In this document: positions 32,063-45,615 of the stretch, piece after piece
How positions within the stretch are numbered: the stretch's first letter is position 1
Layout of the letters: each line of letters opens with the position of its first letter
Origin: Sphingomonas naphthae
Lineage (GTDB): Bacteria; Pseudomonadota; Alphaproteobacteria; Sphingomonadales; Sphingomonadaceae
Length of the DNA: 64,000 nt
Assembly (NCBI RefSeq): GCF_028607085.1
Contig: NZ_CP117411.1
Location: forward strand, 1,550,001 to 1,614,000
Reading direction: 5' to 3'
Notes under the pieces: model-generated
What the model saw: the letters and a program-made list of their open reading frames with translations, nothing else
Databases searched by the model: none
Told to the model about the DNA's origin: nothing
Program-made: the position numbers and the translations under genes

Positions 32063-32063
32063 G

Positions 32064-32261: not shown

Positions 32262-32277
32262 CCTGAAGGAGCTGTCC

Positions 32278-32550
32278 ATGCCTGACACCGACGCGGAGGC
32301 GCTGGCCTCCGCGCGTGCGATCCTGCACGCGCACAAGACCGAGCAGCTGGCCGCGTTGCAAGCGGTGGCCGCATCGCCCGCCTGGGGCGAGATCGAGGCG
32401 GCTATCGCCGCCGCGTGCGCCGCCGGCTTCGAGGATCCGGCCATGGCGGTCCACCTCAACGCCATGGCGGGGTGCTTCGACCGGCTGCCGCGTGCGATCG
32501 GCGCTTTCGAGAAGCGGCTCGCGGCGTCTGCCCCCGCGCAGAGCGCCTGA
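32278..32550 (+). CDS. Small hypothetical tail protein
   Basis: 90 residues, helical and Ala-rich: MPDTDAEALASARAILHAHK, TEQLAALQAVAASPAWGEIE, AAIAAACAAGFEDPAMAVHL. ATG follows TGAAGGAGCTGTCC. It ends 2 bp before the fibre/SGNH gene and may be a chaperone or small structural partner; no direct evidence. Confidence 0.55.
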   Translation: MPDTDAEALASARAILHAHKTEQLAALQAVAASPAWGEIEAAIAAACAAGFEDPAMAVHLNAMAGCFDRLPRAIGAFEKRLAASAPAQSA

Positions 32551-32552
32551 CG

Positions 32553-34907
32553 ATGCCTGTCACGTCGGCCGAAGCCGCAGCGATGATCGCGGCGACCAAC
32601 CAGCTGGTCGGTACCGTCGCGGAATGGAAGGCCATCGCCACCGGCACGGTCAACGGCGGGCCGAACGGGACGGGCGACTATCCCGTCACCATGCCGGACG
32701 GCACGGTGCTGCTCACGCCGTCGATCGCGAAGATCGCTGCGATGAACGGCGATCCGGCGGCGGCGGCGACCACGTTGCAGGGCTATGTCAACGCGGTGGA
32801 GGCACACCGCCAGGCGGTGGCCGACATGCGGGCGGAGGTGTGGGACGCCAAGGATGAGGCGCTCGACGCGGCGGCGTCGGCTGCGGCGGATGTCATCGCG
32901 CAGACGACTGCCTCGACCTCCGCGCAGCTGGCCGCCGCGCAGGCGACGCTCGACGGCAAGGTGGCGGCGGCGAACGCCGGCAAAGCCGGCGCCGAGACGG
33001 CGCGATCCGGGGCGGAAGCGGCGGCGGCGCTGGCGCAGACCATCACCGACTTCCTCGGCGCGGTGATGACGGCCAGCGGGGGCGAGGGCCTTCGCTTCGT
33101 CGACAAGCGCGGCAAGATCGGCGTGCTGCTCAACCAGATCGGGCTGACGCTGGCCGGGAAGCTGATCGCCAACGAGGTGAGCGCCAATCTGGCGACCATC
33201 ATGTCGGCCGCCGTCGGCAGCCTGTCGTTCGGCAGCGTGATGCTCTCCGCGACCAGCGACGGCATGATCCGGGTGACCGACAAGCGCGGGCAGATCGGAT
33301 TCCAGATCAGCGCCACCGGCCTCGTCTCGGTCGTCGCGCTGGCCGTGCAGACGATGGCGGTCTCCTCGCTGACCAGCGACACGCTGGCGACGGGCTCGAT
33401 CAGCCTCGGCCCCCTGTCGCTCCAGATCGGCCCGAGCGGTCTGCGTTTGACGGACAAGCGGGGCAACATTGGCCTCGAGTTCACCACGGCCGGCGAACTG
33501 AAGGTCTATAAGCTCAGCGCCTCGATCCTAGCCGGCGCGGGGAGCGGCAGCGGGGTGGCCGCACCGGCTATCCGGCGCCGGATAGCCTCGAACCATGGCG
33601 GCTGGCGCCCGCCCAAGACCCTCGTGAAGAGCAATGGCACAACGCAGCTGAGCGGCACGGATCGCTTCACCTGGACGCCCAATACCGATGTCCAGGGCGT
33701 CCAGTTCGTGCTGGTCAACGCGCTGGCCGGCGGCGTCGTGGTTCTGACCGGGCCGGGCAACGCGATCAAGCTCTGCCTCGCGGTCGAGGCGAGCAACAGC
33801 TACAACCTCACCTATCCGCGTATCGGCTCGTCGAGCGGTATTCCGATCAGCAGCGGCGGCAAGACGGGCAGCTGGCTCGGCGACGGAGAGATCGCGATCT
33901 CGGCGCCGGCCTATACAGGCGTGCTGGCAAAGAGCTCATCGCAATATTACCGGCTCCATAAGGCGGTAAACAGCGGCGAGTACTGGCCGCTCAACGCGGC
34001 GGCCGACGATCAGACCTGGGGCGGCGTGGCCACCACCGATCCAGTGATGGGCGGCAGCGTGACCAACGGGTCGGATCAGACGAAGTCCTATTTGGGCAGC
34101 ACGGCCTATGCCGCGTTCAAGGATACCACGTCCGCGACCGGCGCCTTCATGGCGACGGCCGTGATCGCCGAGCAGATTACGCCGGTGCCGGTTGTGATGA
34201 TCGCCGGAGACAGCATTTCGGACGGCTATGGCGGCGCAAAGCTCGGGCTCGGCTATCTCGGGCGGGCGTTCACCGATCGCAACGTCGCGTGGTGCAACTT
34301 CGGCAATCCCGGCTCGAACATGCTCTCACTGTCCTATCATGGCGCCGTGACGGCCCAGATGGTCGAATATGTCGATCATATCGTCTGCCACATCGGCACC
34401 AATGACCTGGGCAGCACCGCGCCGACGCTAGAAATCTTCAAGGCCAACATGCTCACTCTGGCGAAGACGTGGCTGCGAGCGCATTCGAAGATCTGGTTCG
34501 CCACGATCGTGCCTCGAAACACGTCGACCGACAGCTGGGCAACCTATGCGAACCAAGCCGTTCGCACGGATGTGCCAAGCGGCGGAACGCAGACGCTCGA
34601 AGCGCTGCGGGTGTCGGTGAACAACTGGCTGCGCGACACATCGCCCTCGGGCGCCGTCGCGTGGCTTCAGGCCAATCTGAAGGTCGGCACGGTGGCCGGG
34701 ATCATCGATCCGTGCCTCGCGGTCGAGCGCAACGCGGATGGTTCGGCGCTGGCGCTGGTCGGCGGCCAACAGACGGCGGGCACCGGTGGGCGCTGGATCG
34801 TGAATGGTGCCGCCAATTACGCCACCGGCGACGGCATCCACCCGAGCGACGCCGGGCAGATTTTGATGGCCACTACCATCCCGGCCGCTTCGGCTTTCGC
34901 GCTTTAA
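32553..34907 (+). CDS. Tail fibre/spike with C-terminal SGNH (GDSL) hydrolase
   Basis: 784 residues. Residues about 100-170 are a coiled coil. Three repeats of a DKRGxIG motif follow near residues 184, 242 and 300, then a beta-rich region. The C-terminal third is an SGNH hydrolase: nucleophile S554 in IAGDSISDG (block I), GNPGSN (block II), N617 in HIGTNDLGS (block III), D760 and H763 in DGIHPSDAGQ (block V). Such domains deacylate or deacetylate cell-surface polysaccharide. The protein probably binds and modifies the host surface glycan during adsorption. Confidence 0.82.
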   Translation: MPVTSAEAAAMIAATNQLVGTVAEWKAIATGTVNGGPNGTGDYPVTMPDGTVLLTPSIAKIAAMNGDPAAAATTLQGYVNAVEAHRQAVADMRAEVWDAKDEALDAAASAAADVIAQTTASTSAQLAAAQATLDGKVAAANAGKAGAETARSGAEAAAALAQTITDFLGAVMTASGGEGLRFVDKRGKIGVLLNQIGLTLAGKLIANEVSANLATIMSAAVGSLSFGSVMLSATSDGMIRVTDKRGQIGFQISATGLVSVVALAVQTMAVSSLTSDTLATGSISLGPLSLQIGPSGLRLTDKRGNIGLEFTTAGELKVYKLSASILAGAGSGSGVAAPAIRRRIASNHGGWRPPKTLVKSNGTTQLSGTDRFTWTPNTDVQGVQFVLVNALAGGVVVLTGPGNAIKLCLAVEASNSYNLTYPRIGSSSGIPISSGGKTGSWLGDGEIAISAPAYTGVLAKSSSQYYRLHKAVNSGEYWPLNAAADDQTWGGVATTDPVMGGSVTNGSDQTKSYLGSTAYAAFKDTTSATGAFMATAVIAEQITPVPVVMIAGDSISDGYGGAKLGLGYLGRAFTDRNVAWCNFGNPGSNMLSLSYHGAVTAQMVEYVDHIVCHIGTNDLGSTAPTLEIFKANMLTLAKTWLRAHSKIWFATIVPRNTSTDSWATYANQAVRTDVPSGGTQTLEALRVSVNNWLRDTSPSGAVAWLQANLKVGTVAGIIDPCLAVERNADGSALALVGGQQTAGTGGRWIVNGAANYATGDGIHPSDAGQILMATTIPAASAFAL

Positions 34908-34918
34908 GGAGACAGGAC

Positions 34919-35689
34919 ATGAGCGGCCTCGACATCAATCTGGGCGACATCGAGTTCACCAACTCGCTCGGCCTCGCGCTCCCCGTCACGCGGGGGCTGA
35001 TGCGGATGTTTCTGCCCGGCTCCGCCGCTTACAGTGACGCGGACCTATCGGGCAGCGGTACGTCGGCCGTCCTGTGGAATGGCGCCGCCAATAACACGCG
35101 CAATGCCTGGACGATCGATTTCGCGGCATTGTCGGGGTATCAGGCGGGTGGCTACGACCCCAATATTCCGCTCGCCTCGACGCCCAAGCCGCCGATCACG
35201 CTGATCGGGGTTGGTCGGAACGGCATCTGCATCGGCGACTACTACAACGCCAGCACACTGACTTCGACCGCCTACGTCGAGGTTATTGACGGCGTCCTCG
35301 CCTGCCAGAGTCAGACGGCGATCGGCGCCGCGCCACTAGACATCGCCACCCTGTCAGGGGGCGCATACGCGACCGAGTATAATTTCTATGCCGGCGTCAT
35401 GGACTGGGTGTCGGGCGGGCAGTCCCGGCAGACCACCTATTACGGCCGCAACAATGTCCTGACGGCTTCGGCGACCGCCCAGCAGGCGGCGGTCGCGCAA
35501 AGCGCCGCGATCAACTATCAGATCAGCACCAATCGCGGCACCAACCCCGTGAAAAACGGGAGCACGACGAGCGGCGCGCGTTCGATCGCGGCCCAGCTTA
35601 TCTTCAATGTCGCCCTCACCCCTACCGAAGTCCGCAACGTCTATCAGTGGCTCCGCCGATACTTCGACGGCCGGATCGCCGGACTGTGA
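34919..35689 (+). CDS. Tail/receptor-binding protein, hypothetical
   Basis: 256 residues from ATG 34919 (AAGGAGACAGG upstream). It opens MSGLDINLGDIEFTNSLGLA and reads like a LamG/concanavalin-type beta sandwich: LIGVGRNGICIGDYYNAS, EYNFYAGVMDWVSGGQSRQT, and ends FNVALTPTEVRNVYQWLRRY, a typical lectin-fold closing. It is the last gene of the rightward tail block. Function as receptor-binding or fibre-tip protein is inferred. Confidence 0.65.
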   Translation: MSGLDINLGDIEFTNSLGLALPVTRGLMRMFLPGSAAYSDADLSGSGTSAVLWNGAANNTRNAWTIDFAALSGYQAGGYDPNIPLASTPKPPITLIGVGRNGICIGDYYNASTLTSTAYVEVIDGVLACQSQTAIGAAPLDIATLSGGAYATEYNFYAGVMDWVSGGQSRQTTYYGRNNVLTASATAQQAAVAQSAAINYQISTNRGTNPVKNGSTTSGARSIAAQLIFNVALTPTEVRNVYQWLRRYFDGRIAGL

Positions 35690-35692
35690 AGA

Positions 35693-35866
35693 TCATTCGG
35701 CCGAAGGCGTGGACAGAAGGCGGACGACCCGCGCCCAATGCGCGAGGTTCCCAAGGTCACCCTCCTCGCCCGCGCGGAACATGCGGGCATTCGCCTCTTC
35801 GAGCGCCCGATCGCCATATTTCTTTCGTAGGTGTGCAGCGTCGAACGCTGCCAGCAACTCGACCAC
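35693..35866 (-). CDS. Small hypothetical protein, 57 aa, antisense to late genes
   Basis: GTG 35866 preceded by GAGAGGGTCGCC. The product reads VVELLAAFDAAHLRKKYGDR, ALEEANARMFRAGEEGDLGN, LAHWARVVRLLSTPSAE. Amphipathic, regular helices with typical coding composition; no stop interrupts it. It converges on the receptor-binding gene with 3 bp between stops. It resembles small helical prophage proteins of unknown role. The start may lie further upstream but no ATG is present. Confidence 0.55.
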   Translation of the reverse strand: MVELLAAFDAAHLRKKYGDRALEEANARMFRAGEEGDLGNLAHWARVVRLLSTPSAE

Positions 35867-36153
35867 CGGCGACCCTCTCGCGCTGAATGATTTCAGCGGT
35901 TTACGGCAGATATGTCGCCGCCTTTACGATGGGGCGGCGGACCGCAACGGGGTCGGGTAAAGGCAGCACGATAAGCTCGCCACTCAACCAAGGCGGGCCG
36001 CCCCGTGGAACGAGGCGGCCCTAGGGACCGGAGGCTGCGTCCGCCGCCGCCTCCAAGCATAAGACGGCGCCGTGTCGGCGCATCCACATCGGAGATAATC
36101 GACATGAACGACATTGCCCCCGCCGCGTCTGCGGTGGCGCAGGCGCGCGCCTC
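35867..36153. other. Non-coding structured stretch before lysis genes
   Basis: No gene beyond a possible 17-codon leader (ATG 36104 to TGA overlapping the next GTG). Hairpins: GGGCCGCC (35995-36002) with GGCGGCCC (36014-36021), and GGAGGC/GCCTCC near 36030-36053. Probably a transcription boundary between tail and lysis modules. No T tract, so termination is not certain. Confidence 0.4.
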
Positions 36154-36687
36154 GTGAGCGTCAACAGCCTTGTCGCGCAGTCGGTCGCCTCCGGGCCGGC
36201 CACTCAGGCGCCGCTCAGCTTCAACGGCGACCCGTCGTTGTTCATGTTCAACCTCTTCCTCATGACGGCCATGTTCTTTCTGGGCGCGATGATGGCGGGC
36301 AAACAGGGCGGGCGCATCTGGCAACAGCGGCGCTTCGACCATCCGCTTGATCCGATCACGATCTATCGCTTGATCCTGATGTTCGCCGGGACGGGCATAT
36401 CCCTCCGGTGCGGCGCCGAGGCGATGTACCTGTGGAGCTGGAACCCGGATGCGCCGGCCATGGTCGCGCGGACGGCGATGGCGAAACGCTGGCTCGATCC
36501 GATCGCCTGCGCGGCCGGCGCCATTTGGATGACGCTGGCGATCCTCGGCGAGCCCGGCATCGAGCATCAGCTTCGCAAGGCGCCCCTGCCGGTCGATATG
36601 TGGTCGCGCTGGCCCGCGCTGGCCCGCGCCCTCGGCGTCGTCATGGTCAGCTTCGTGGCCGCCTTCGCCGCTGTTGTGCTTCGGTGA
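36154..36687 (+). CDS. Polytopic membrane protein of the lysis module
   Basis: 177 residues from GTG 36154. Four hydrophobic segments: PSLFMFNLFLMTAMFFLGAM, ITIYRLILMFAGTGISL, LDPIACAAGAIWMTLAILGE and LGVVMVSFVAAFAAVVL. It starts four bases inside a 17-codon upstream frame and overlaps the next membrane gene by 4 bp. Holin or antiholin role is likely from the position just before the endolysin; no holin family recognised. Confidence 0.6.
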   Translation: MSVNSLVAQSVASGPATQAPLSFNGDPSLFMFNLFLMTAMFFLGAMMAGKQGGRIWQQRRFDHPLDPITIYRLILMFAGTGISLRCGAEAMYLWSWNPDAPAMVARTAMAKRWLDPIACAAGAIWMTLAILGEPGIEHQLRKAPLPVDMWSRWPALARALGVVMVSFVAAFAAVVLR

Positions 36688-37064
36688 ACCAGATCGCGGG
36701 GGCGGGGGCCGCCGCAACGATCCCTGTGGTTTGGAGCTTCTTCGGCTTCGACTTCCAAGCTGGCCCCGTGATCGTCGGCGTCTGCGCCGTCGTCATCACC
36801 CGGCTCACCATCACCCTCAACAGCAAGACCCGGCCGCGCATCGTTCTCGACGTGTTGGTCACCAGCCTATGCGCGCTGCTGACCGCACTATGGATCCAGG
36901 CTCATACGCTTGATCTGCTCAAGGCGGGCGTCACGGGCATCGGGATCGCATCCCTCGGCCTCGGTGTGATCGGCATCGCCAAGAGCCAGGTCGGCACCGC
37001 CCTCCGGCTCGGCATCCAGACCGCGCTCAAGGCGCTCGCCGGCAGCGACACCACCAAGCCCTAA
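36684..37064 (+). CDS. Putative holin
   Basis: 126 residues from GTG 36684. Three hydrophobic stretches: IPVVWSFFGFDFQAGPVIVG-type N-terminal helix, VLDVLVTSLCALLTALWIQA and TGIGIASLGLGVIGIAKSQ. Size, charge (basic C-terminus) and position directly before the endolysin fit a class I holin that permeabilises the inner membrane. The neighbour upstream may be its partner. Confidence 0.62.
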   Translation: MNQIAGAGAAATIPVVWSFFGFDFQAGPVIVGVCAVVITRLTITLNSKTRPRIVLDVLVTSLCALLTALWIQAHTLDLLKAGVTGIGIASLGLGVIGIAKSQVGTALRLGIQTALKALAGSDTTKP

Positions 37065-37082
37065 CCTCCACAGGAGACATCG

Positions 37083-37676
37083 ATGGAACCCCTCCCCGCC
37101 GCCTATCGGTGGCTGAATAGCCATGTCCCGCTCCCGAAAATCGTGACGGCTGCGCTCGAGCAGCTCGGTACGGTGGAGGTGCCCGGCAAAGCAAACTCGT
37201 CGGTCATCATGGGCTGGGCGGATGAAGTCGGCGTCGGCGCGATCGGCTATCGCTACACCGGCGATGACGTGCCGTGGTGCGGCTTGTTCATGGCCGCGAT
37301 GGCCAAGCGGGCCGGGAAGCCGATCCCGGCCGGGCCGCTCTATGCGCTGAACTGGGCGCAGTTCGGCGACATGGTGGCCTCGCGCGCCAGCCTCGACACC
37401 GCCAAGCCGCTGCGCGCCTTCAATGGGCGGGTGCCGTCGCTTGGCGACGTGCTGGTGTTCCGTCGGCCGACGGGCGGCCATGTCGGGCTGTATGTCGGCG
37501 AGGATGCCAACGCCTTCCACGTCCTCGGCGGCAACCAGGGGGATCGCGTCTGCATCCTCCGCATCGCGAAGGCGCGCTGTGTCGCGGTGCGCCGGCCGCC
37601 GATGTCCATTCCGCCCGCATCGGTTCGGCCGTTCCAGCTTGCGGCGGCCGGGGCGCTGTCGAAGGACGAAGCGTGA
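37083..37676 (+). CDS. Endolysin, NlpC/P60-CHAP-like (TIGR02594 type)
   Basis: 197 residues. Catalytic Cys in DDVPWCGLFMAAMAKRAG and His in GGHVGLYVGEDANAFHVLGG give the cysteine-peptidase/amidase pair of the TIGR02594 phage lysin family. It lacks a signal peptide, so it needs the holin. The first 15 residues EPLPAAYRWLNSHV are a short N-terminal helix. It cleaves peptidoglycan peptide or amide bonds at host lysis. Confidence 0.8.
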   Translation: MEPLPAAYRWLNSHVPLPKIVTAALEQLGTVEVPGKANSSVIMGWADEVGVGAIGYRYTGDDVPWCGLFMAAMAKRAGKPIPAGPLYALNWAQFGDMVASRASLDTAKPLRAFNGRVPSLGDVLVFRRPTGGHVGLYVGEDANAFHVLGGNQGDRVCILRIAKARCVAVRRPPMSIPPASVRPFQLAAAGALSKDEA

Positions 37677-37843
37677 TCGGTCGGTTGCTGCTCGGCTGGG
37701 CGATCGGCGAGGCCCTGGCGGAAGTGTCGGCGGCGCTGGCGCGGCGGCGTGCGCGCAAGGCGGCTGCGATCGAAAGCGGCCGGGGCGTGGAGGCCCCAGC
37801 CACCAACGATGGCGTCAGACCGAAGGAATCGCCTCGGCCGTGA
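37673..37843 (+). CDS. Small protein after endolysin, possible spanin-like
   Basis: 56 residues from GTG 37673, overlapping the lysin stop. An N-terminal amphipathic/hydrophobic stretch MIGRLLLGWAIGEALAEVSA is followed by a basic run ARRRARKAAAIES. Position after the lysin is where spanins occur, but the hydrophobic segment is short and there is no lipobox. It converges on the next gene with a 29-bp overlap. Confidence 0.45.
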   Translation: MIGRLLLGWAIGEALAEVSAALARRRARKAAAIESGRGVEAPATNDGVRPKESPRP

Positions 37844-38276
37844 ACGCCGGGACGGCTTGGCCGGAAACCATCACCGCCGACTTGCCGGTGATGAACATCG
37901 AGCCGAGCAGCGCGCCGACCGTGTTGCCGCGCCCTTCCTGGCGATGCTTGCCCTTCAGGGCATAGGCCTTGCCGTGGACGGTCACGGTGTTGAAGGTCAG
38001 CTCGAATTTCGCCGACTTGCCGCCGATCCCCTTGCCGGTGCGATAGGTGATCGTGGCTTTCACGGGCGAGCCGCGCGGGATGATGACAACACCGTTCTCC
38101 GCCACATCGGCGGCAACCTGAAGCATCTGGCTATCACCGACCTTCATGTCGATCGACGTGATCTCGGTGACTGGCGTGACCTGGATAATGGTGTCCATCG
38201 GCAGTGTCACGACCGCCTGTTGTGCCACAGCAGACGCAGAAACCACCGCCAGCGCGGCGGCGAACATCATTCGCAT
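37815..38276 (-). CDS. Secreted hypothetical protein
   Basis: 153 residues from ATG 38276. Signal peptide MRMMFAAALAVVSASAVAQQ, then a beta-rich domain DTIIQVTPVTEITSIDMKVG, GVVIIPRGSPVKATITYRTG, FELTFNTVTVHGKAYALKGK. The pattern is seen in small periplasmic proteins of alphaproteobacterial accessory DNA; no function known to me. It ends a leftward gene set and has an 8-bp inverted repeat just upstream. Expressed from a prophage, it could alter the lysogen surface. Confidence 0.62.
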   Translation of the reverse strand: MRMMFAAALAVVSASAVAQQAVVTLPMDTIIQVTPVTEITSIDMKVGDSQMLQVAADVAENGVVIIPRGSPVKATITYRTGKGIGGKSAKFELTFNTVTVHGKAYALKGKHRQEGRGNTVGALLGSMFITGKSAVMVSGQAVPAFTAEAIPSV

Positions 38277-38292
38277 TGAAATTCCCCTCTGG

Positions 38293-38312
38293 ATCGCATC
38301 CCCCGATGCGAT
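38293..38312. promoter_or_regulatory. Perfect inverted repeat upstream of secreted-protein gene
   Basis: ATCGCATC (38293-38300) and GATGCGAT (38305-38312) are exact inverted copies separated by CCCC, 17 bp before the ATG. It may be an operator for the winged-helix regulator encoded just upstream, or a stem in the 5' untranslated RNA. Confidence 0.4.
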
Positions 38313-38386
38313 GCGCGCAAGAGCACCACAATCTCCGCAAACGTCAACAAATCTGCGATCCATTTTGGACCAATCTGCGGAGCCCC

Positions 38387-38818
38387 TCAGATGTCGGTCA
38401 GCAAGGCGGATAGCTCCGCCAGCGCGGAAGGCGACAGCGCCACATTAATCCTCCGGCCATCGGCCTTGGCCGGGCGCCTTTCGATCAGACCGCGCGCTTC
38501 GAGCAGCACCAGATGACGCAGCGCCGTGGTGGGTGGTACAGCGGAGGCGAGACAAGCGCTGCTGACCGAGATGCGACGGCCGGCGGCCTCCGCTACGAAA
38601 AGGTCGAGCAGCATATCCCACGCGGGATCGGCGAAGAGGCCCTTGCCCAGCACCGCCTCCCGTCGTCGGCGGATTCGGAGGAGCCGGTTGGCGATTTCGA
38701 CAGGATCGGCGGCGAAGTGGCCGATCGCCGGGAGCGGCGCGATGCGATCGGCAACCGCCTCGCACAAGGTGATCGCGCGGCGCAGGAGGTCAGCGGGATG
38801 CGGCGGCTGGGCGGTCAT
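38387..38818 (-). CDS. Winged-helix transcriptional regulator (MarR-like)
   Basis: 143 residues from ATG 38818. The second half is a winged helix: DMLLDLFVAEAAGRRISVSS, ACLASAVPPTTALRHLVLLE, ARGLIERRPAKADGRRINVA. The N-terminal half is helical, probably for dimerisation. Overlaps the upstream membrane gene by 29 nt, so both are one transcript. The target may be this operon or host genes. Confidence 0.72.
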   Translation of the reverse strand: MTAQPPHPADLLRRAITLCEAVADRIAPLPAIGHFAADPVEIANRLLRIRRRREAVLGKGLFADPAWDMLLDLFVAEAAGRRISVSSACLASAVPPTTALRHLVLLEARGLIERRPAKADGRRINVALSPSALAELSALLTDI

Positions 38819-39344
38819 CGGCCGCCACCCTGCCGGCGTGGATCGGCATACGCCGCCGCAGCGGCCCTGGCACAATGTGCCGCGTGAGACGATGCAGGGC
38901 TGTCTCCCACGCCGCTGCATCGGTGCGAAGCCGATACCGCAGGGTGCCCAGCGCGAGCGCCGCCAACTGCGGATAAATCCAAAGCTGGGTGGCATTCTTG
39001 TAATAGGCCGGAAACGGTATCGGCTTCAGGATCATCGCCATGTGCATGAGCATGACGACGGCCTGCATCGACGCCACCCAGATCGGCCAGAAGCGATCGG
39101 CGCGCAGGGCCAGCGCCAGCATCGCCGAAAACGCCAGCCCATCGACGATCGCGACGCCCACCTCCGCATCCTCGAACCGGTGCACGATCGGCGAGATGGC
39201 GAACCAGGCCGCCACCCTGCCGACCGTGAGGATGACCACCATCCAACGCTCGGCCGATCCGCCCCGCCCGATCGCGTAGCCGCAGGCGAGCAGGTAAAGC
39301 AGATTGAATACGATCACGCGGATCTGAAGTAGAGTGAGCAGCAT
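38790..39344 (-). CDS. Polytopic membrane protein
   Basis: 184 residues from ATG 39344. Hydrophobic segments: IRVIVFNLLYLLACGYAIG, WMVVILTVGRVAAWFAISPI, VGVAIVDGLAFSAMLALALR, WVASMQAVVMLMHMAMILKP and LWIYPQLAALALGTLRY, so four or five spans, with a basic cytoplasmic C-terminus. No recognised family. Overlap with the downstream regulator suggests a membrane sensor paired with a DNA-binding protein. Alternative start further upstream is unlikely. Confidence 0.6.
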   Translation of the reverse strand: MLLTLLQIRVIVFNLLYLLACGYAIGRGGSAERWMVVILTVGRVAAWFAISPIVHRFEDAEVGVAIVDGLAFSAMLALALRADRFWPIWVASMQAVVMLMHMAMILKPIPFPAYYKNATQLWIYPQLAALALGTLRYRLRTDAAAWETALHRLTRHIVPGPLRRRMPIHAGRVAADDRPAAASR

Positions 39345-39399
39345 GGGACTGACCGACCACGAGCCGGTATGATCGGTCAAGGGTCGGCCAGCCCATCGG

Positions 39400-39744
39400 T
39401 CAGCCGACCGCGTGCAGCGAGTGGAGCGAACCCCTCGTGCTGGCGGGGTTCTGCTGGCAGTCATCGCCGACGCTCGTGATCGGCAGGCCGGCGGCCTGCC
39501 CGAGCGAAACGAACCCCTCATGTGCCTCGATGCAGACAGCCTGCAACTCGATCGCGCCACCGATGACACGGTGCATTCGCTTGAGCAGGTCATGGCCGGT
39601 CGTCACCGGCAGGCCCCGTGCCTGCCGCGCGTCGATCATCGTTTTCAGGAACTCCCCGGTAACGGCGATCGTCTGATCCTGTGTTGCCTCAACAGCGCGA
39701 ATGCCGCGTGCCAGGGCGATATCGGTACGGATGAAATCGGACAT
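39400..39744 (-). CDS. Small helical hypothetical protein
   Basis: 114 residues, MSDFIRTDIALARGIRAVEA, TQDQTIAVTGEFLKTMIDAR, LLKRMHRVIGGAIELQAVCI. Soluble, helical, two cysteines. AGGGGGAAGCT precedes the ATG. It lies between the HTH-membrane gene and the polytopic gene in the same direction with 55-72 bp gaps. No family recognised. Confidence 0.58.
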   Translation of the reverse strand: MSDFIRTDIALARGIRAVEATQDQTIAVTGEFLKTMIDARQARGLPVTTGHDLLKRMHRVIGGAIELQAVCIEAHEGFVSLGQAAGLPITSVGDDCQQNPASTRGSLHSLHAVG

Positions 39745-39816
39745 AGCTTCCCCCTCGCGGCCAGCGAGGTGACCGCGTCGTCGTGTTCGTCAGAATTTGA
39801 TGGCGTGGACGGGCGC

Positions 39817-40257
39817 CTAGCCGCCCCAAACCCACATTAGGCTGACCGCGACGGCGCCGAGCAGGGCCGTGCGGAAGATAATGATCGAGATACGCTCTAT
39901 CGCGTCATGCCGGTTATGCCTCCCGTCTGGGGGAGCAAGCGGCCCGCCGATATTAGGGTCGGGCTGCGGCTCCATGGTGCTGGGAGCCGCATCTGGCGGG
40001 GGCGGTGGGGCAGTGGGGAGGGTGATTTTGCGAGGGGGGTTTTTATCCCCCCATCCCTCAGCGTCAGCGAGTATCTGAGCGGCGTGGCGGCGAGCGACGT
40101 TGCCCAGTTTTTCACGCGCCGAATCGATCCGCTTGTTCACCGAACCTTCGGAAATGTCCTCAAGATACGCGATCTCGATGCTCGTTCGGCCAAGATAGAC
40201 GTGACGCAGCATCGCCTTCTCGCGCGGCGTCAGCCTGTCAACTCGATCATCCGCCAC
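39817..40257 (-). CDS. LuxR-type HTH protein with C-terminal membrane anchor
   Basis: 146 residues. N-terminal GerE/LuxR HTH: RLTPREKAMLRHVYLGRTSI, EIAYLEDISEGSVNKRIDSA, REKLGNVARRHAAQIL. A Pro-rich linker (PTAPPPPPDAAPSTMEPQP) leads to one transmembrane helix ISIIIFRTALLGAVAVSLMW. A membrane-tethered DNA-binding protein of this layout is typical of sphingomonads. First gene of the leftward set. Whether the HTH is released by proteolysis is unknown. Confidence 0.75.
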   Translation of the reverse strand: MADDRVDRLTPREKAMLRHVYLGRTSIEIAYLEDISEGSVNKRIDSAREKLGNVARRHAAQILADAEGWGDKNPPRKITLPTAPPPPPDAAPSTMEPQPDPNIGGPLAPPDGRHNRHDAIERISIIIFRTALLGAVAVSLMWVWGG

Positions 40258-40372
40258 GCGGCTTGTGCACCCGAATATCCGTCCCGATCACGAACCTAAT
40301 CCATATTGGAGCGCGTTCGTCCATTGCGGAGTTCGTCTTGCAGATTCTATGTAATCGAGCGAATGGACCGCG

Positions 40373-40654
40373 GTGACCATTACCGACGCCATCGACTGGG
40401 CTGCGCCGTCCGAATTTTTCGAGGCGGCGAGGGTGGGTTCTTCCCAGATGCTGCACCGCAGGCGCATGACGCTGAAAGCCGCCATATCCCGCTTCATGGC
40501 TCTGCCTGCCGATTTGCAGCCGGGAGCAGGGGTGGGCCTGATCGAGCCGATCGAGATTTCGGACGGCGTCACGCTGGGCTGGCTGGCTGCGGAACAGTGC
40601 CGCGAGCTGGGCAACCTTATGGCGGACAGTGAGCAGCCCGACCAACAGCGTTGA
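40373..40654 (+). CDS. Small hypothetical protein (paralogue A)
   Basis: 93 residues from GTG 40373: MTITDAIDWAAPSEFFEAAR, RRRMTLKAAISRFMALPADL, QPGAGVGLIEPIEISDGVTL. The core ALPA...AGVGLIEPIEI aligns with AGIGVIDPI in the gene at 42422, so they are distant paralogues. Divergent from the HTH-membrane gene with 115 bp between starts. Function unknown. Confidence 0.5.
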   Translation: MTITDAIDWAAPSEFFEAARVGSSQMLHRRRMTLKAAISRFMALPADLQPGAGVGLIEPIEISDGVTLGWLAAEQCRELGNLMADSEQPDQQR

Positions 40655-40712
40655 TCAGCCCGGGCGCTGACTGAGCCATCGGCAGCGCTGGCGCGCCGCC
40701 GCGCCTGTTAGG

Positions 40713-40991
40713 TCAAAGGCCGGCGGCTTTCCGCACCGCGTCGTTGATGCGCGTCTGCCAGCCAGGTCCGTCCGCGCGGAACCGCTCCAGCGCATCCTTG
40801 TCCAGCCGGAGGCTCACCCGTTCCTTGTTCGACGTGGCGGAGCCGACCGGGCGACCGCGCCCACGCTTGCCGAAGGCGGCGAGAACCTCCGGCGACAGCA
40901 CCTCGGCGGCGGGCCGGGCGCGGGCGAAATCCTCTTCCGTCCACTCGGGGTTGTCCTCGTCGAATACGATGGGGGGCTTATCAGAGGCCAT
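40713..40991 (-). CDS. brnA: BrnA antitoxin
   Basis: 92 residues. The C-terminus RVSLRLDKDALERFRADGPG, WQTRINDAVRKAAGL is the ribbon-helix-helix DNA-binding part of BrnA. The N-terminal part (DNPEWTEEDFARARPAAEVL) wraps the toxin. It binds BrnT and the promoter for autoregulation. It overlaps brnT by 11 nt on the same transcript with the toxin first, the usual brnTA order. Confidence 0.85.
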   Translation of the reverse strand: MASDKPPIVFDEDNPEWTEEDFARARPAAEVLSPEVLAAFGKRGRGRPVGSATSNKERVSLRLDKDALERFRADGPGWQTRINDAVRKAAGL

Positions 40992-41244
40992 AGCGGCTCA
41001 TCTCCTTTTCGTGGGCGCGACGGTAGCTGATCGCGCGGACTGCGGTAGCGGTGACGGTGAACACGAGGCAGCGGCCCTCGCCATCGACCCGCGCGAAAGC
41101 GCGCTGGCGATCCTCACCGTACTCGCGGCGATCGTCAGCAACGACGACGGCGGAGGAAATCGGGAAGAGCCCCGCGTCGGCGAGCGACAGGCCATGCTTG
41201 GCGATGTTCGCTTCGTTTTTGGCGGGGTCAAATTCGATGTCCAT
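40981..41244 (-). CDS. brnT: BrnT ribonuclease toxin
   Basis: 87 residues: MDIEFDPAKNEANIAKHGLS is the invariant BrnT opening, then the fold through GRCLVFTVTATAVRAISYRR and AHEKEMSRYG. BrnT toxins are RelE-like ribonucleases that inhibit translation. The pair could stabilise the prophage or abort competing phage infections. No ribosome site precedes the ATG, and a promoter fits so close that the mRNA may be leaderless. Confidence 0.87.
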   Translation of the reverse strand: MDIEFDPAKNEANIAKHGLSLADAGLFPISSAVVVADDRREYGEDRQRAFARVDGEGRCLVFTVTATAVRAISYRRAHEKEMSRYGL

Positions 41245-41298
41245 GAATTATCTGTAGTGACGGATAATTCAGCGGTCAACGATTTATTTGTCATGACA
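41244..41298 (-). promoter_or_regulatory. brnTA promoter with inverted repeats
   Basis: On the minus strand TTGACC (plus 41274-41279), 17 bp, TACAGA (plus 41251-41256). TGAATTATC (41244-41252) and GATAATTCA (41263-41271) are perfect inverted copies overlapping the -10 and spacer, a likely BrnA operator. A second palindrome TGTCATGACA lies at 41289-41298. Confidence 0.55.
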
Positions 41299-41310
41299 GA
41301 AAATAGAACA

Positions 41311-41431
41311 CGTCCGTTCGGCTCCGGCCGGACGGGGGTTCCGGGCTGGCACCCGGAAACCGACGGACCAGAGATCCGTCACGCGCGGCTGGCCTAGCCG
41401 CAACGCCCCGCACCCGCGCAACGGGCGGGGC
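41311..41431 (+). ncRNA. Array of five hairpins upstream of mom-like gene
   Basis: Stems: CGTCCG/CGGACG (41311-41334); GGTTCCGGG with CCCGGAAACC, one bulge (41337-41361); GACGGA/TCCGTC (41362-41380); GCGGCT/AGCCGC (41385-41401); GCCCCG plus CCCG with CGGG plus CGGGGC (41405-41431). They are almost adjacent and end 20 bp before the mom ATG. No tRNA fold and no terminal T tract. Reads as a structured 5' leader or an independent RNA; which one is unknown. Confidence 0.5.
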
Positions 41432-41451
41432 ATGTGTGAGCATATTTCCCC

Positions 41452-42216
41452 ATGGAGTCTCGATTCGCGTTCAACACCCCGTCGGCTTTCGTCGGCGGCG
41501 CTGCCGGCGAACCTGCCGGATACCTCTTCGACCCCGCCGATTTGACCGGCCGCCGCGAGGCGATCGGCTTTGGCGAGGCCGACTTTCACGTCCGTCTGCT
41601 CGATCGCGAGATCGCCAACGGCATCGTGATCGCCCACCACTACAGCCGGCGCGTCTATCGCGCGTCCACCCTGCACCTTGGCGTCTGGATCGGCGGGCAT
41701 CTGCTCGGCGTGCTGCAATACGGCTATGCCATGAACCCGGCATCGGCTGGCAGCGTCGTCACCGGCACGGCCATGAACGAATACCTCGAACTCAACCGCA
41801 TGTGGCTGGCGGACGAGGCGCCTCGCAACAGCGAGAGCCGGGCGTTGGCCTATTCGATCCGGTTCATTCGCCGCGCCCGGCCGGCGGTGAAGTGGCTGCA
41901 ATCGTTCGCTGACGAGCGGTGCGGGCTATTCGGCACCGTGTACCAGGCGGCCGGCTTCACCTTCCATGGCGAGCATCTCGGGCGCTTCTGGGAGCTGGAT
42001 GGCGAATGGTATCACGACAGCCTGATGACGAACGGCCGGACGGCGACCAGCCCGCGCGCGGCGCACCTGCGGGCGAACCGCGATCGGGCGACGAAGCACC
42101 TGCTGCGCCAGTTCCGCTATCTGCGCTTCCTGAAGCCCCGCTTTGCCAAGGGGTGCCGGTATCCGGTGAAGCCATTCCCGAAGCCCGACTATCGGGGTGC
42201 CGAACCGATGACATAA
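41452..42216 (+). CDS. mom: Mom-like DNA modification protein
   Basis: 254 residues. Motifs of the Mu Mom family in order: HHYSRRVYRASTLHLGVWIG (61-80), LGVLQYGYAMNPASAG, VTGTAMNEYLELNRMWLADE (104-122), APRNSESRALAYSIRFIRR (123-141), KWLQSFADERCGLFGTVYQA (147-166) and WELDGEWYHDSL. Mom has a GNAT-like fold and converts adenine to N6-methylcarbamoyl-adenine, protecting phage DNA from restriction. All blocks seem intact. No com gene is recognisable beside it, so control must differ from Mu. Two GANTC (CcrM) sites lie in the first 15 bases of the gene. Confidence 0.82.
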   Translation: MESRFAFNTPSAFVGGAAGEPAGYLFDPADLTGRREAIGFGEADFHVRLLDREIANGIVIAHHYSRRVYRASTLHLGVWIGGHLLGVLQYGYAMNPASAGSVVTGTAMNEYLELNRMWLADEAPRNSESRALAYSIRFIRRARPAVKWLQSFADERCGLFGTVYQAAGFTFHGEHLGRFWELDGEWYHDSLMTNGRTATSPRAAHLRANRDRATKHLLRQFRYLRFLKPRFAKGCRYPVKPFPKPDYRGAEPMT

Positions 42217-42421
42217 ATCGGGACGGCGGATCAGCGACTTAGCCGCGTCGCGGACGAACGAAGCATATAACCCATCGCCTGTTGACGGCAGGCCGATGAG
42301 CAGTAGCAGGAAGGCGCGGCCCGTCCAGACGACGAGCCCCCGCCCAGGGGGTGCGAGGACGGTGGGAGCCCGTCGGGCCGCTCCACTCTAATGCGAGATC
42401 GCCGATCGTGGGCCAGAGCCA
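42217..42421. other. Non-coding stretch between mom and paralogue B
   Basis: Contains GC-rich hairpins (CCCCC/GGGGG around 42336-42350; GGAGC/GCTCC at 42365-42384) but no gene with good signals. A TTG-started minus-strand frame with CYCSSACRQ exists and is not supported as a gene. Confidence 0.35.
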
Positions 42422-42613
42422 ATGGGATCGGGAAGTTGCGCTGATCTAGTTGCCGGTCGTGCAGCTTCGCCCTTGGCGCGAGCGTATAACATTGCGGGCA
42501 GGGCGCTGGAAGCGTTCAGCGCCCTGCCCGCGCCGGTTGAGGACGCGGCCGGCATCGGCGTGATCGATCCAATACCGGCTATGATCGACAGTCGGCCAGC
42601 ACTGCTTGGCTAG
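42422..42613 (+). CDS. Small hypothetical protein (paralogue B)
   Basis: 63 residues: MGSGSCADLVAGRAASPLAR, AYNIAGRALEAFSALPAPVE, DAAGIGVIDPIPAMIDSRPA. The ALPAP...AGIGVIDPI stretch resembles the protein at 40373. Shorter at the C-terminus, so it may be a degenerate copy. No function recognised. Confidence 0.45.
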   Translation: MGSGSCADLVAGRAASPLARAYNIAGRALEAFSALPAPVEDAAGIGVIDPIPAMIDSRPALLG

Positions 42614-42663
42614 GACACCGCTAAGGCATGTCGCAGGCTAGCGAGCGCGATGCCAGCCCCTGA

Positions 42664-42960
42664 TTAAGCTGCTTGAGGAACGCGTAAGGCGTTGCGAAAG
42701 CAACGCCCAATCATGTCGTTGATCTGCCGCGTACCTCGAACGATGCGGAGCTTGGCCCTGATATCGTCAAACGACATTGTCTCAAGCAACGGCACTAATC
42801 CCGAATTTACAAAAGACGAGGTTACATCGCCCACCCCGTGGAAAGAGAGTGTCACCGTCCCTTTCCCTGCTAGGTGCCTTTGCAGGATAGCGAGGATAAT
42901 GTCGCCATCTTCGCCTGTATAGCAGCGCGCGACGTGATCGAGCGCCGTGATGGTTACCAC
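42664..42960 (-). CDS. DUF4325 / STAS-like domain protein
   Basis: 98 residues. Beta-alpha STAS-like pattern: DIILAILQRHLAGKGTVTLS, FHGVGDVTSSFVNSGLVPLL, ETMSFDDIRAKLRIV. The DVTSSFVNSGLVPLLE segment is the DUF4325 hallmark. It overlaps the STAS-GHKL ATPase gene by 7 bp and is the second gene of that pair. In partner-switching systems a STAS protein is the substrate of a GHKL kinase, here with S or T candidates in VTSSFVNSG. The pairing is clear; the activity is inferred. Confidence 0.78.
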   Translation of the reverse strand: MVTITALDHVARCYTGEDGDIILAILQRHLAGKGTVTLSFHGVGDVTSSFVNSGLVPLLETMSFDDIRAKLRIVRGTRQINDMIGRCFRNALRVPQAA

Positions 42961-43832
42961 TGCATGTCCTCCTCTTCGTCATCATCGCCCACAAATGCGT
43001 GCGTTGGCAGTGCGATATCGACCAACGTACCAGGATAGCTTCCGTTGCCGAGATGTGCCTGACGCTCCTGATAGGGAGCCGCGAGCAAGGAACCCGAAAA
43101 CGAGTAGATACCAACCCGACCGCCGTTCGATAGCACGGTTGTAATCAGATAATCCAGACCCACCCCTCGGTTGTTCGGCGTCGTCTTCGCAGTCACACCC
43201 TCCTGCGCCGCCTTCCAGATCGCAACATCGTCGCGCAAATCGCCATAGCGCGATCTCATGCTTGACGGTATTCCGCGACCGAAATCAGATATCGTTATAC
43301 CGATTTGCTTTATGTTCGGATAATGCTGAACATGGACACAACCGATGTCCTCTGTTGAATGATCTCGAATGTTATTAAAAATCTCCTTGACACAAACCTT
43401 TAAGCTATACAACTTTCTATCCGGTACATTAACTATTGGACATAGCCAAGGAGATAGTTTGAAATCTAGCCATCCCGGCCCCTCACTGTGCCTAACACGA
43501 GAGCATGGAATGGTTGTAGACTTAACGCGGCTAAATATGCTCACCTTCTGTCCAAGATAATTTTCAAAAAAACCACAAGAATCAAGATAAAATATCGCGT
43601 TAGATCGATTTACATTATGATTACTAAAAAAACATTTTACTGATCGGTTAAACAACCAATCCAATGTATTAGTTAAAACCGTCAAACCGACGCCATCTAT
43701 AAAATTCAAATACCCAAAATCGAAGGTTATCTCGCCATCTTTCGGCTCACCCTCCGGAGTCACGAACTGATCGCAAAAGTGATAGAGCGCGCCAATCTTG
43801 AACGTGCTGGGGAGGATGATTGTTATAGCCAT
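42954..43832 (-). CDS. STAS-like plus GHKL ATPase fusion protein
   Basis: 292 residues. Residues 30-95 look STAS-like (EITFDFGYLNFIDGVGLTVL, then LDSCGFFENYL). Residues 140-275 are a GHKL ATPase: N box E150-IFNN-IRDHS, G1 box D183-FG-R-G187 (ISDFGRGIPSSM), G2 box NNRGVGL (G223/G225). The tail is acidic (DDDEEED). All ATP-binding boxes are intact; there is no histidine-kinase phosphoacceptor domain. The gene is markedly AT-rich (notably 43300-43830) against the rest of the window, so recent transfer is likely. It forms a two-gene unit with the DUF4325 protein. Function unproven. Confidence 0.78.
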   Translation of the reverse strand: MAITIILPSTFKIGALYHFCDQFVTPEGEPKDGEITFDFGYLNFIDGVGLTVLTNTLDWLFNRSVKCFFSNHNVNRSNAIFYLDSCGFFENYLGQKVSIFSRVKSTTIPCSRVRHSEGPGWLDFKLSPWLCPIVNVPDRKLYSLKVCVKEIFNNIRDHSTEDIGCVHVQHYPNIKQIGITISDFGRGIPSSMRSRYGDLRDDVAIWKAAQEGVTAKTTPNNRGVGLDYLITTVLSNGGRVGIYSFSGSLLAAPYQERQAHLGNGSYPGTLVDIALPTHAFVGDDDEEEDMQW

Positions 43833-43901
43833 CTGACGCCCTTATCGGTTCAGTGGCCTAATTTCATCCCCGTTTGCACCCTACCGCGCAGTGGTAATCT
43901 G

Positions 43902-44195
43902 CTAAGCCGCTTCCCGCTCCTTCACCTGTTCCGGCTCGATCAGGCATCCCAGCCGCCAGCCGTTGCCGCCGAACCATTCGTTCGCGGCGGCATCGACAGC
44001 GGCCTGAGGATCTCCATCGGCCATCCCCTCCCGCACCCGCGCCATCACGTCGAACGGCATCCCCAGCCTGGGGAACAGCGGGTCGCGCTCGGCCGCTCGC
44101 GCGAGGTCGCCGATCCATCCCGGCCGGCGCCGCTGGTCGAGCAGCCATAGGCCGAACGGCTTGGTCGGGCGGCATGACTTCGCTTGCAATGTCAT
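43902..44195 (-). CDS. YozE/SAM-like domain protein (copy 1)
   Basis: 97 residues: FGLWLLDQRRRPGWIGDLAR, AAERDPLFPRLGMPFDVMAR, MADGDPQAAVDAAANEW. This follows the YozE_SAM_like pattern (WL..Q...IGDLA..A..DP.FP). GGAGGTGAA precedes the ATG. Homologous to the gene at 44519. Function of the family is unknown. Confidence 0.65.
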   Translation of the reverse strand: MTLQAKSCRPTKPFGLWLLDQRRRPGWIGDLARAAERDPLFPRLGMPFDVMARVREGMADGDPQAAVDAAANEWFGGNGWRLGCLIEPEQVKEREAA

Positions 44196-44301
44196 TTCAC
44201 CTCCAACTATGCATATGATAATATTGCATTTATTTTCTGCGTCATGGGGCCATTACGCCCAGCCACCTGTTCTCTAAATTCAGCGCAACAGGTGACACAT
44301 T

Positions 44302-44499
44302 TTGAACAACTCCGACTTTTGGTCGGTGACGGCTATCGCCTTAAGCGCCGTTTCCATGACATCCACGCTCACCATCAGGCGCGACATCGCGAGAGTAACT
44401 CAGAGCACAAGCGTCGATATTCGACACGCGGCCACTACAACCGAGACTAAGGCGCGCGACTATGATCTCGACCATCCGAACCGCATTGAGATCGGTTAA
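44302..44499 (+). CDS. Small hypothetical protein, possible membrane anchor
   Basis: 65 residues from TTG 44302 behind AGGTGAC. N-terminal hydrophobic stretch FWSVTAIALSAVSMTSTLTI followed by a polar, Thr/Arg-rich tail. It lies alone between two leftward YozE-like genes. Start codon and expression are uncertain. Confidence 0.35.
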   Translation: MNNSDFWSVTAIALSAVSMTSTLTIRRDIARVTQSTSVDIRHAATTTETKARDYDLDHPNRIEIG

Positions 44500-44518
44500 A
44501 GCGTTATCGGTGGGTGCG

Positions 44519-44881
44519 TCATAGCCGCTCCCATTCGCGCTCGGCATCGTCGATCGCCTCGAACACATCGCCGTCGGCGCCCCGGCCGGACAGGTACTTG
44601 CGCACTTCCTCGGGATCACCCGCCTTGGGAAAGCCCGGATCGGCCTTGGCCGCCTTGGCGAGGTTGGCGATCCATTCGCTGCGATGCGTGACCTGCTTCA
44701 CCAGCCAGCCGCCGAACGGCTGGCGGTGGATAGCGGGTTCCTCCGCATAGAATGTCGGGAGGCTGTCTGTAACGGGCTGCGCGATGGCCGGCGCCGACGG
44801 GTACACCCTGACAGGGCCATCGCCGGTTGGCATCTCCATTTGCATGGCGGCTGATGTCGCTCGCTTAGCTGCGCGGGGCAT
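44519..44881 (-). CDS. YozE/SAM-like domain protein (copy 2)
   Basis: 120 residues. An N-terminal extension of about 50 residues precedes FGGWLVKQVTHRSEWIANLA, KAAKADPGFPKAGDPEEVRK, YLSGRGADGDVFEAIDDAER, the YozE-like fold. Aligns with the 43902 protein over about 65 residues (WL..Q....WI..LA.AA..DP.FP...). Probably an old duplication. It is divergent from the HIRAN gene. Confidence 0.65.
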   Translation of the reverse strand: MPRAAKRATSAAMQMEMPTGDGPVRVYPSAPAIAQPVTDSLPTFYAEEPAIHRQPFGGWLVKQVTHRSEWIANLAKAAKADPGFPKAGDPEEVRKYLSGRGADGDVFEAIDDAEREWERL

Positions 44882-44923
44882 GGCGTTTCCTCTTGCACGA
44901 CTCGACTGCCAGCCATCATATAT

Positions 44924-44938
44924 GTTCCACGTTTGTTC
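44924..44938. promoter_or_regulatory. LexA (SOS) box, GTTC-N7-GTTC
   Basis: GTTC (44924-44927), seven bases, GTTC (44935-44938) is an exact match to the alphaproteobacterial LexA operator. It lies 18 bp before the HIRAN ATG and downstream of a possible promoter TTGCAC (44893-44898)-N18-CATATA. It also faces the divergent YozE-like gene. Confidence 0.72.
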
Positions 44939-44955
44939 TACAATCGGAGGGCCTG

Positions 44956-45399
44956 ATGGGCTGGATCGAGTTCACGCTTCCCGCGACCGGCCGTCTGGGG
45001 AAGCGGCGGAAGGCGGCGGCGATCAAGGATGCGCAGGCAGCCGCTCAGGGTCGGCGCATCTGTCATGCCCCGCCCTCACCCGCTGGCGTGCGCCTCAACG
45101 TGGTCGGCGGGTTCTACGATAACGAGGATGGCACCAGTCGGCAGAAGGAGACCCGTAAGCTGCGACCGGGCGATCCCGTTCAGCTACGGCGCGAACCGGA
45201 AAACCGCTTCGACCCTTCGGCTGTTGGCGTGTATCCGGCGGCCGGCGTGCGCATCGGCTACATCGGCGAACAACGCACCGCCTGGATCGGATCGAAGATC
45301 GATCGGGGTATGGTGACTGGCGCGACGGTCGAGCGGATCATCGGCAAGGTACGCGAGGGCAATTTGAAGCCCGTGCTGCGGATAGAGATCGAACCCTGA
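44956..45399 (+). CDS. HIRAN-domain protein
   Basis: 147 residues from ATG 44956 behind CGGAGGG. The HIRAN fold covers residues about 35-130: RLNVVGGFYDNEDGTSRQKE, RPGDPVQLRREPENRFDPSA, VGVYPAAGVRIGYIGEQRTA. The NRFDPSAV...IGYI pattern is typical. HIRAN domains in Rad5/HLTF recognise 3' DNA ends at stalled forks. Here the domain is almost the whole protein. The LexA box just upstream makes it an SOS gene, the last one before attR. Confidence 0.82.
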   Translation: MGWIEFTLPATGRLGKRRKAAAIKDAQAAAQGRRICHAPPSPAGVRLNVVGGFYDNEDGTSRQKETRKLRPGDPVQLRREPENRFDPSAVGVYPAAGVRIGYIGEQRTAWIGSKIDRGMVTGATVERIIGKVREGNLKPVLRIEIEP

Positions 45400-45509
45400 T
45401 CCCCCCTCTCCCCACCCTTGGCCGAGTTCGACGGACGGCAGAAAATGTTGGAGCTATCGCGCATTCGAATTTCCGAACACCCGAGTCGGCGCCGCGCCAT
45501 CCTTGTTCA

Positions 45510-45532
45510 AGTGGGGGCCTATTTGGGGGCCT
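45510..45532 (+). promoter_or_regulatory. Putative integrase arm-type sites, right arm
   Basis: AGTGGGGGCCT (45510-45520) and ATTTGGGGGCCT (45521-45532) are tandem, near-identical to the three copies beside attL at 1173-1215, and lie 64 bp from attR. They support the P and P' arms of attP being joined in the excised phage. The rest of 45400-45595 has no gene. Confidence 0.5.
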
Positions 45533-45595
45533 TGCCGGAAACGGCCGATATAGGATCGGCGATAATTAGCCAAAAACGCGACCTTATGGGACGGA

Positions 45596-45615
45596 CACCC
45601 CATCCGCCATTTGCC
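45596..45615 (+). repeat. attR core (20 bp)
   Basis: CACCCCATCCGCCATTTGCC, identical to attL at 1046-1065. The left flank is phage DNA; the right flank leads into the DUF5990-like gene. It contains only the last bases of tRNA-Ser, not a second tRNA. Confidence 0.92.

What the first reader, a model, noticed from the sequence alone, without database searches (positions are those of the whole stretch)
42664..43832. AT-rich two-gene unit: STAS-GHKL ATPase fusion plus a separate DUF4325/STAS-like protein
Sequence shows intact N, G1 and G2 ATP-binding boxes (E150/N153, D183-G185-G187, G223-G225) behind a STAS-like N-terminus, and a 98-residue STAS-like partner overlapping by 7 bp. Known GHKL/STAS pairs (SpoIIAB/SpoIIAA, RsbW/RsbV) work by partner switching on sigma factors; here STAS is present both in cis and in trans and no sigma or anti-sigma target is nearby. 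Low GC, location between a Mom-like gene and attR among toxin-antitoxin and SOS genes, suggest an acquired defence or superinfection-control switch. I know of no characterised function for this pair.
Basis: partly seen in the sequence, partly recalled or inferred. Interest (0 to 1): 0.82.

Follow-up and report, generated by a model that had tools for sequence, protein, structure and literature searches.

The report
Toxinless phage STAS kinase switch
A prophage carries a two-gene protein switch, a kinase plus the small protein it probably phosphorylates, that belongs to a recently described family of bacterial DNA-damage/immune switches but lacks the toxin or DNA-binding part those switches use, so its target is open.

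Summary
The two genes are real and intact: K (42954-43832, minus strand, STAS + GHKL) and S (42664-42960, minus strand, STAS-like), overlapping by 7 bp, about 1.8 kb inside attR of a 44.6-kb tailed prophage in tRNA-Ser. K's ATP residues are invariant in 76 non-redundant relatives. The closest characterised protein is Escherichia VapS (PDB 9z7o; profile E 6e-13), and S Ser48 aligns without gaps with its phosphosite Ser48. So the pair belongs with CapKS/VapKSC (EMBO J 2026), where a DNA-damage-activated STAS-GHKL kinase phosphorylates a STAS partner. It is neither published type: K has no HTH, S has no winged helix and no toxin-inhibiting tail, and no VapC follows. Such pairs form their own clade across Pseudomonadota and Bacillota, sit near prophage ends beside lysis or integrase genes, and have no conserved third gene; known defence genes nearby are rare. 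Best reading: a phage-borne, effectorless branch of the CapK/VapK phosphoswitch, probably damage-responsive, acting in trans on an unknown target. The biochemistry is inferred by homology and the defence role is unproven. New variant of a known kind.

The parts
42954..43832 (-). K: STAS-GHKL protein, predicted ssDNA/DNA-damage-responsive serine kinase (292 aa)
   Evidence: phrog_3364 E 1.9e-36; profile vs SpoIIAB and prestin STAS; AF2 pLDDT 93.1; SpoIIAB fold match; invariant E150/N154/H158/D183/G185/G187/G223/G225 in 76/76
42664..42960 (-). S: STAS-like (DUF4325) predicted kinase substrate, 98 aa, Ser48 the likely phosphosite
   Evidence: PF14213 E 1e-5; phrog_9989 E 9e-22; PDB 9z7o VapS E 3e-4 alone, 6e-13 by profile; position 48 Ser/Thr in 70/71
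42954..42960 (-). 7-bp overlap: last K codons (Q-W-stop) contain the start codon of S; the GAAGAGGAGGA just upstream (codons for EEED in K) looks like the Shine-Dalgarno of S
   Evidence: sequence; 70/71 S starts overlap K and 59/71 have a 5-nt SD inside K against 3% background
1046..45615 (.). host prophage, attL (1046-1065, tRNA-Ser 3' end) to attR (45596-45615)
   Evidence: perfect 20-bp direct repeat, tRNA-Ser, integrase, primase, DnaB-like helicase, terminase, major head protein
43902..44195 (-). small YozE-SAM-like ORF 69 bp upstream of K on the same strand, possibly co-transcribed
   Evidence: promoter-like site 44245-44218 (not above chance)

Best explanation
The pair is a phage-borne, effectorless member of the CapK/VapK kinase plus CapS/VapS substrate superfamily. 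K is a STAS-GHKL serine/threonine kinase and S is its STAS substrate. In an undisturbed lysogen K is idle and S is unphosphorylated. When single-stranded DNA or DNA damage appears (superinfection, SOS, prophage induction), K phosphorylates S on Ser48, and S lets go of (or takes up) a partner protein not encoded next to it. Shown here: homology, intact catalytic residues, conserved acceptor position, strict pairing with overlapping genes, prophage-end location, absence of VapC, wHTH and HTH. Inferred: kinase activity, ssDNA activation, the acceptor residue. Unknown: the target, and whether the outcome is defence or control of the prophage itself.
For: S profile vs VapS 9z7o E 6e-13; window Ser48 on VapS Ser48 in an ungapped alignment. 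In VapS, S48E releases VapC and S48A abolishes phage protection; CapK phosphorylates CapS at the matching Ser54 and is activated by ssDNA. K has E-x3-N-x3-H and the G1/G2 boxes in 76/76 phage-type, and E150, N154, H158, D183, G185, G223, G225 in 113/113 relatives. Residue 44, likely the CapK W68/VapK F54 aromatic, is F/Y/W in 67/76, and W in three of four VapKs with a PIN toxin. S position 48 Ser/Thr in 70/71; F50 and N52 in 71/71. The phage-type clade (support 99/88) is distinct from VapK with PIN (100/99). Five more distant relatives have K and S fused into one protein. KS within 5 kb of a contig end in 36 of 42 viral contigs against 10.7 expected.
Against: No biochemical data for any member of the phage-type clade. 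The Escherichia VapK sequence was not on hand, so equivalence of residue 44 with VapK F54 is inferred. The AF2 model of S gives no significant PDB fold match (best E 0.11, though prestin, a sulfate transporter and RsbS head the list). S has two adjacent serines (48, 49), so the acceptor is not certain.
Confidence: 0.68

Rival explanations
1. Anti-phage or superinfection defence unit: damage-activated K releases S from a host protein whose freed activity stops growth or phage replication (VapKSC logic with a host-encoded target). This is one possible outcome of the switch in the best explanation.
For: VapKSC protects E. coli about 100-fold against phage Bas42; the pair sits in the variable end region of prophages where lysogeny-expressed accessory genes are usual (general knowledge); in the window it lies near BrnT/BrnA.
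Against: No toxin or effector is conserved next to it (0 PIN in phage-type loci; no Pfam family in more than 3 of 66 downstream genes); few or no known defence genes adjacent.
Confidence: 0.35
2. Prophage induction or lysis timer: the switch reports DNA damage to the phage's own regulators or lysis genes, tuning when the prophage leaves.
For: Endolysin/amidase and integrase are the commonest neighbours; LexA-like boxes upstream in a few loci (4 against 0.95 expected for each of two patterns) and one at 44924-44938 in the window.
Against: KS orientation relative to the lysin varies; no single phage gene is always present; some copies lie beside host genes such as GroEL or RF-1-domain genes.
Confidence: 0.25
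3. Classical partner-switching anti-sigma system: K is an anti-sigma kinase and S its antagonist.
For: K shares fold and motif with SpoIIAB; a LuxR/sigma-region-4-like protein is 2.4 kb away.
Against: K has an extra N-terminal STAS domain as in CapK/VapK; S is closer to VapS than to any other solved protein; no sigma factor is conserved beside the pair.
Confidence: 0.1
4. Counter-defence decoy: the phage S mimics VapS/CapS to absorb a host VapC, VapK or CapK.
For: S resembles VapS and lacks its toxin-blocking tail.
Against: A decoy would not need an active kinase, yet K's catalytic residues are invariant and K stands directly before S in the surveyed loci.
Confidence: 0.08

Closest known systems
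VapKSC (VapK kinase, VapS antitoxin, VapC PIN toxin; Chambers et al., EMBO J 2026, PMC13373217; VapS structure 9z7o)
   Same: K has STAS + GHKL without HTH; S is a STAS protein with Ser at the VapS Ser48 position; K directly followed by S; mobile DNA (Deinococcus plasmid L063 shows K, S, PIN in a row).
   Different: No VapC gene; S is 98 aa and lacks the VapS 94-116 tail that blocks VapC; separate, well-supported clade; N-box neighbours differ (NNIxDH here, SNxxxH in two of four VapKs with PIN).
CapK/CapS (DNA-damage-responsive controllers of CBASS, Bub and other immune operons; same paper)
   Same: STAS-GHKL kinase next to a STAS substrate; conserved acceptor serine.
   Different: CapK carries an N-terminal HTH and CapS a C-terminal winged helix, both absent here; no immune operon downstream.
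SpoIIAB/SpoIIAA and RsbW/RsbV partner switching
   Same: GHKL serine kinase fold (SpoIIAB, TM-score 0.69 by target length) with E-x3-N-x3-H, and a STAS partner with a conserved Ser.
   Different: Extra STAS domain in K; no sigma target conserved; S is DUF4325-type, not a classical STAS family member.
PHROG phrog_3364 + phrog_9989 (phage families of unknown function)
   Same: The window proteins are members (E 2e-36, 9e-22); Streptococcus phages LYGO9 and Javan39 carry the pair directly after the lysin.
   Different: PHROGs give no function for either family.

Membership tests
VapKSC | STAS-GHKL kinase without HTH, immediately followed by a STAS protein | tested here: met
VapKSC | Conserved Ser/Thr in S at the VapS Ser48 position | tested here: met
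   ungapped alignment to 9z7o puts window S48 on VapS S48; Ser/Thr in 70/71
VapKSC | Third gene vapC (PIN RNase) | tested here: not met
   no PIN ORF near the window pair or any phage-type pair; found only in L063, L040, L045, L048
VapKSC | S C-terminal tail (VapS 94-116) that inhibits VapC | tested here: not met
   S ends at residue 98; phage-type median 99 aa against 112-125 aa beside PIN genes
VapKSC / CapKS | Aromatic residue in the K STAS domain for ssDNA (CapK W68, VapK F54) | tested here: inconclusive
CapKS | N-terminal HTH on K and C-terminal winged helix on S | tested here: not met
   K begins at the STAS domain; S ends at residue 98
CapKS | Immune operon directly downstream | tested here: not met
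   Mom gene is convergent, 447 bp away; no conserved downstream family
CapKS / VapKSC | ssDNA-stimulated phosphorylation of S by K | not testable with these tools
   needs purified proteins
SpoIIAB/RsbW anti-sigma kinases | Binds and inhibits a sigma factor | not testable with these tools
   no sigma factor conserved nearby

The most novel reading that the evidence does not exclude
Temperate phages of several bacterial phyla carry a self-contained, damage-triggered STAS phosphoswitch with no dedicated effector: S itself is the output and acts in trans on a host or phage protein (superinfection block, or induction/lysis timing), a third mode of the CapK/VapK module beside transcriptional control and toxin release.
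Probability: 0.45. Interest if true: 0.72.

Novelty: new variant of a known kind. Interest (0 to 1): 0.55.

Why it matters
The CapK/VapK module was shown in 2026 to turn ssDNA or DNA damage into immune gene expression or toxin release. Here a whole clade of it, mostly in prophages from Streptococcus to Sphingomonas, has neither output attached. Finding what the phage S protein binds would show either a new way for prophages to defend their host or a new way for them to sense damage and time their exit, and it puts a testable function on two PHROG families now labelled unknown.

Tried and rejected
(1) Acidic K tail ending in EW as an SSB-like or DNA-mimic tail: present in 76/76 phage-type K, but in 59/71 the acidic codons contain the Shine-Dalgarno of S and the Trp codon overlaps its start codon, so overlap constraint alone may explain it; Bacteroidota members and L063, whose S start does not sit on the last K codons in this way, also end acidic + aromatic, so it is left open. 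(2) Hidden third gene: no PIN, no shared downstream or upstream family, no Rfam element. (3) Defence-island neighbourhood: little support. (4) SOS boxes: weak excess, inconclusive. (5) DrmA match of K in PADLOC (55 of 60 members): only about 100 residues of the GHKL domain in a 1750-position model; not DISARM. (6) Docking of K and S: only single chains could be predicted and no coordinates are returned. (7) Escherichia VapK sequence: VapS fragment searches of plasmids, phages and viral contigs gave only Deinococcus VapKSC and an unannotated scaffold.

Full report
WHAT IS THERE. The two ORFs are as described: K, 292 aa, 42954-43832 minus; S, 98 aa, 42664-42960 minus, starting with GTG inside the last codons of K (7-bp overlap). 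K scores weakly with Pfam HATPase_c and HATPase_c_2, and S is a DUF4325 (STAS-like) protein. Both belong to phage families of unknown function, phrog_3364 and phrog_9989. The region is AT-rich (GC 0.485 in 43001-44000 against about 0.65). It is the only copy of K and the only DUF4325 gene found in the 4.3-Mb genome.

SETTING. A perfect 20-bp repeat at 1046-1065 (overlapping the tRNA-Ser 3' end) and 45596-45615 marks attL and attR. Inside are integrase, primase, DnaB-like helicase, terminase and major head genes. The pair lies about 1.8-2.9 kb inside attR, opposite in strand to the late genes, convergent with a Mom gene (PF25680) and downstream of a small YozE-like ORF. BrnT/BrnA genes lie at 40713-41244. 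A HIRAN gene with a LexA-like box (44924-44938, GTTC-N7-GTTC) lies between the pair and attR; three such boxes occur in the window against 1.5 expected, so this is only suggestive.

FOLD AND CATALYSIS. A profile of 60 K proteins finds SpoIIAB (residues 109-198) and, for residues 14-98, STAS domains of prestin. The AlphaFold model of K is confident (pLDDT 93.1, pTM 0.91) and its GHKL half matches SpoIIAB (TM-score 0.69 by target length) as well as GyrB and Hsp90. E150, N154, H158, D183, G185, G187, G223 and G225 are present in all 76 non-redundant phage-type K. E-x3-N-x3-H is the N-box form of SpoIIAB-type serine kinases (established knowledge, not tested here).

THE SMALL PROTEIN. By sequence, S finds one credible solved structure, Escherichia VapS (9z7o): E 3e-4 with the single sequence, 6e-13 with a profile of 32 S proteins. 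The single-sequence alignment has no gaps and an offset of 18 residues. That equals the excess of the 134-residue crystal chain over the 116-residue VapS inferred from the paper, and it puts window Ser48 on VapS Ser48. Position 48 is Ser or Thr in 70 of 71 phage-type S, position 49 Ser in 68, and F50 and N52 are invariant. The AF2 model (pLDDT 94.7) gives only non-significant PDB matches, led by STAS proteins; 9z7o was not among those listed.

THE KNOWN SYSTEMS. Chambers et al. (EMBO J 2026, PMC13373217) describe CapK (HTH-STAS-GHKL) and CapS (STAS-wHTH). CapK is activated by ssDNA and phosphorylates CapS Ser54, which splits the CapS dimer and derepresses an immune operon. They also describe VapKSC, in which VapK is thought to phosphorylate VapS Ser48 and so free a PIN toxin; the operon gives about 2 logs of protection against phage Bas42. 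The parts of the text read here do not discuss a two-gene phage form, and other literature searches found none.

RELATIVES. One genome scan and one viral scan returned 64 and 68 loci. After removing near-copies and distant members, 76 phage-type K remain, from Pseudomonadota (alpha and beta classes), a Thermodesulfobacteriota genome, Bacillota, one Bacteroidota MAG, and many viral contigs. They form one group in the tree (99/88); VapK with PIN (100/99) and a Bacteroidota group (100/100) are separate. S follows K in at least 71 of the 76; in 70 of those 71 the S start overlaps K. Five more distant relatives have K and S fused in one chain, and three have an S with a long C-terminal extension that reads as a winged helix (L059-L061, judged by eye). 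A PIN gene follows S only in L063 (Deinococcus gobiensis plasmid P5), L040, L045 and L048. So all the known outputs exist in the superfamily, and the window's clade has none of them.

NEIGHBOURHOOD OF THE CLADE. In 36 of 42 viral contigs KS is within 5 kb of an end against 10.7 expected (contigs are not all independent and some ends are truncations). The commonest neighbours are endolysins/amidases and integrases. No Pfam family occurs in more than 3 of 66 downstream genes. PADLOC families are absent from 53 viral neighbours and rare among 79 genome neighbours. Gene calls for these neighbours are crude (own script), so single misses are possible.

K TAIL. All 76 K proteins have Trp in the last eight residues, nearly all after an acidic stretch. 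This looks like a functional tail, but the codons GAGGAGGA...ATGG are also the Shine-Dalgarno and start codon of S (59/71 against 3% background). The Bacteroidota K and the Deinococcus VapK also end acidic plus aromatic although their S start does not sit on those codons, so a function is not excluded.

MECHANISM AND LIMITS. The most economical reading is a kinase-substrate phosphoswitch answering to DNA damage or ssDNA, as in CapKS/VapKSC. Kinase activity and ssDNA sensing are inferred from homology. With no wHTH, toxin or conserved neighbour, S must act in trans. Defence and prophage self-control are both open; I lean slightly to a lysogeny-expressed protective function because of the prophage-end location, but the neighbourhood test did not support it. 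As to kind, this is a new variant: same module, output missing.

Noticed in passing
window 42954-43000 and phage-type loci: K C-terminus (acidic residues then Trp) doubles as Shine-Dalgarno and start codon of the overlapping S gene in most relatives: one stretch of DNA serves protein tail and ribosome binding site.
   Followed up: partly
window 44924-44938: GTTCCACGTTTGTTC, an alphaproteobacterial LexA-type box, between a divergent YozE-like gene and a HIRAN gene; similar boxes upstream of K in close relatives L064 and L129.
   Followed up: partly
window 39817-40257: Small protein with LuxR/sigma-region-4 HTH and an apparent C-terminal hydrophobic helix inside the prophage.
   Followed up: no
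window 7645-7920: YdaS-like protein (PF15943, E 5e-12) just upstream of the prophage replication genes.
   Followed up: no
L026/L057, L017/L049, L020/L052, L024/L056, L015/L047: Single-chain K-S fusions in other bacteria; in four of them the residue aligned with Ser48 is His while the next residue is Ser.
   Followed up: partly
L085, L088, L075, L087: Some phage-type pairs sit beside host genes (GroEL, RF-1-domain protein), perhaps remnants after prophage decay or independent capture.
   Followed up: no
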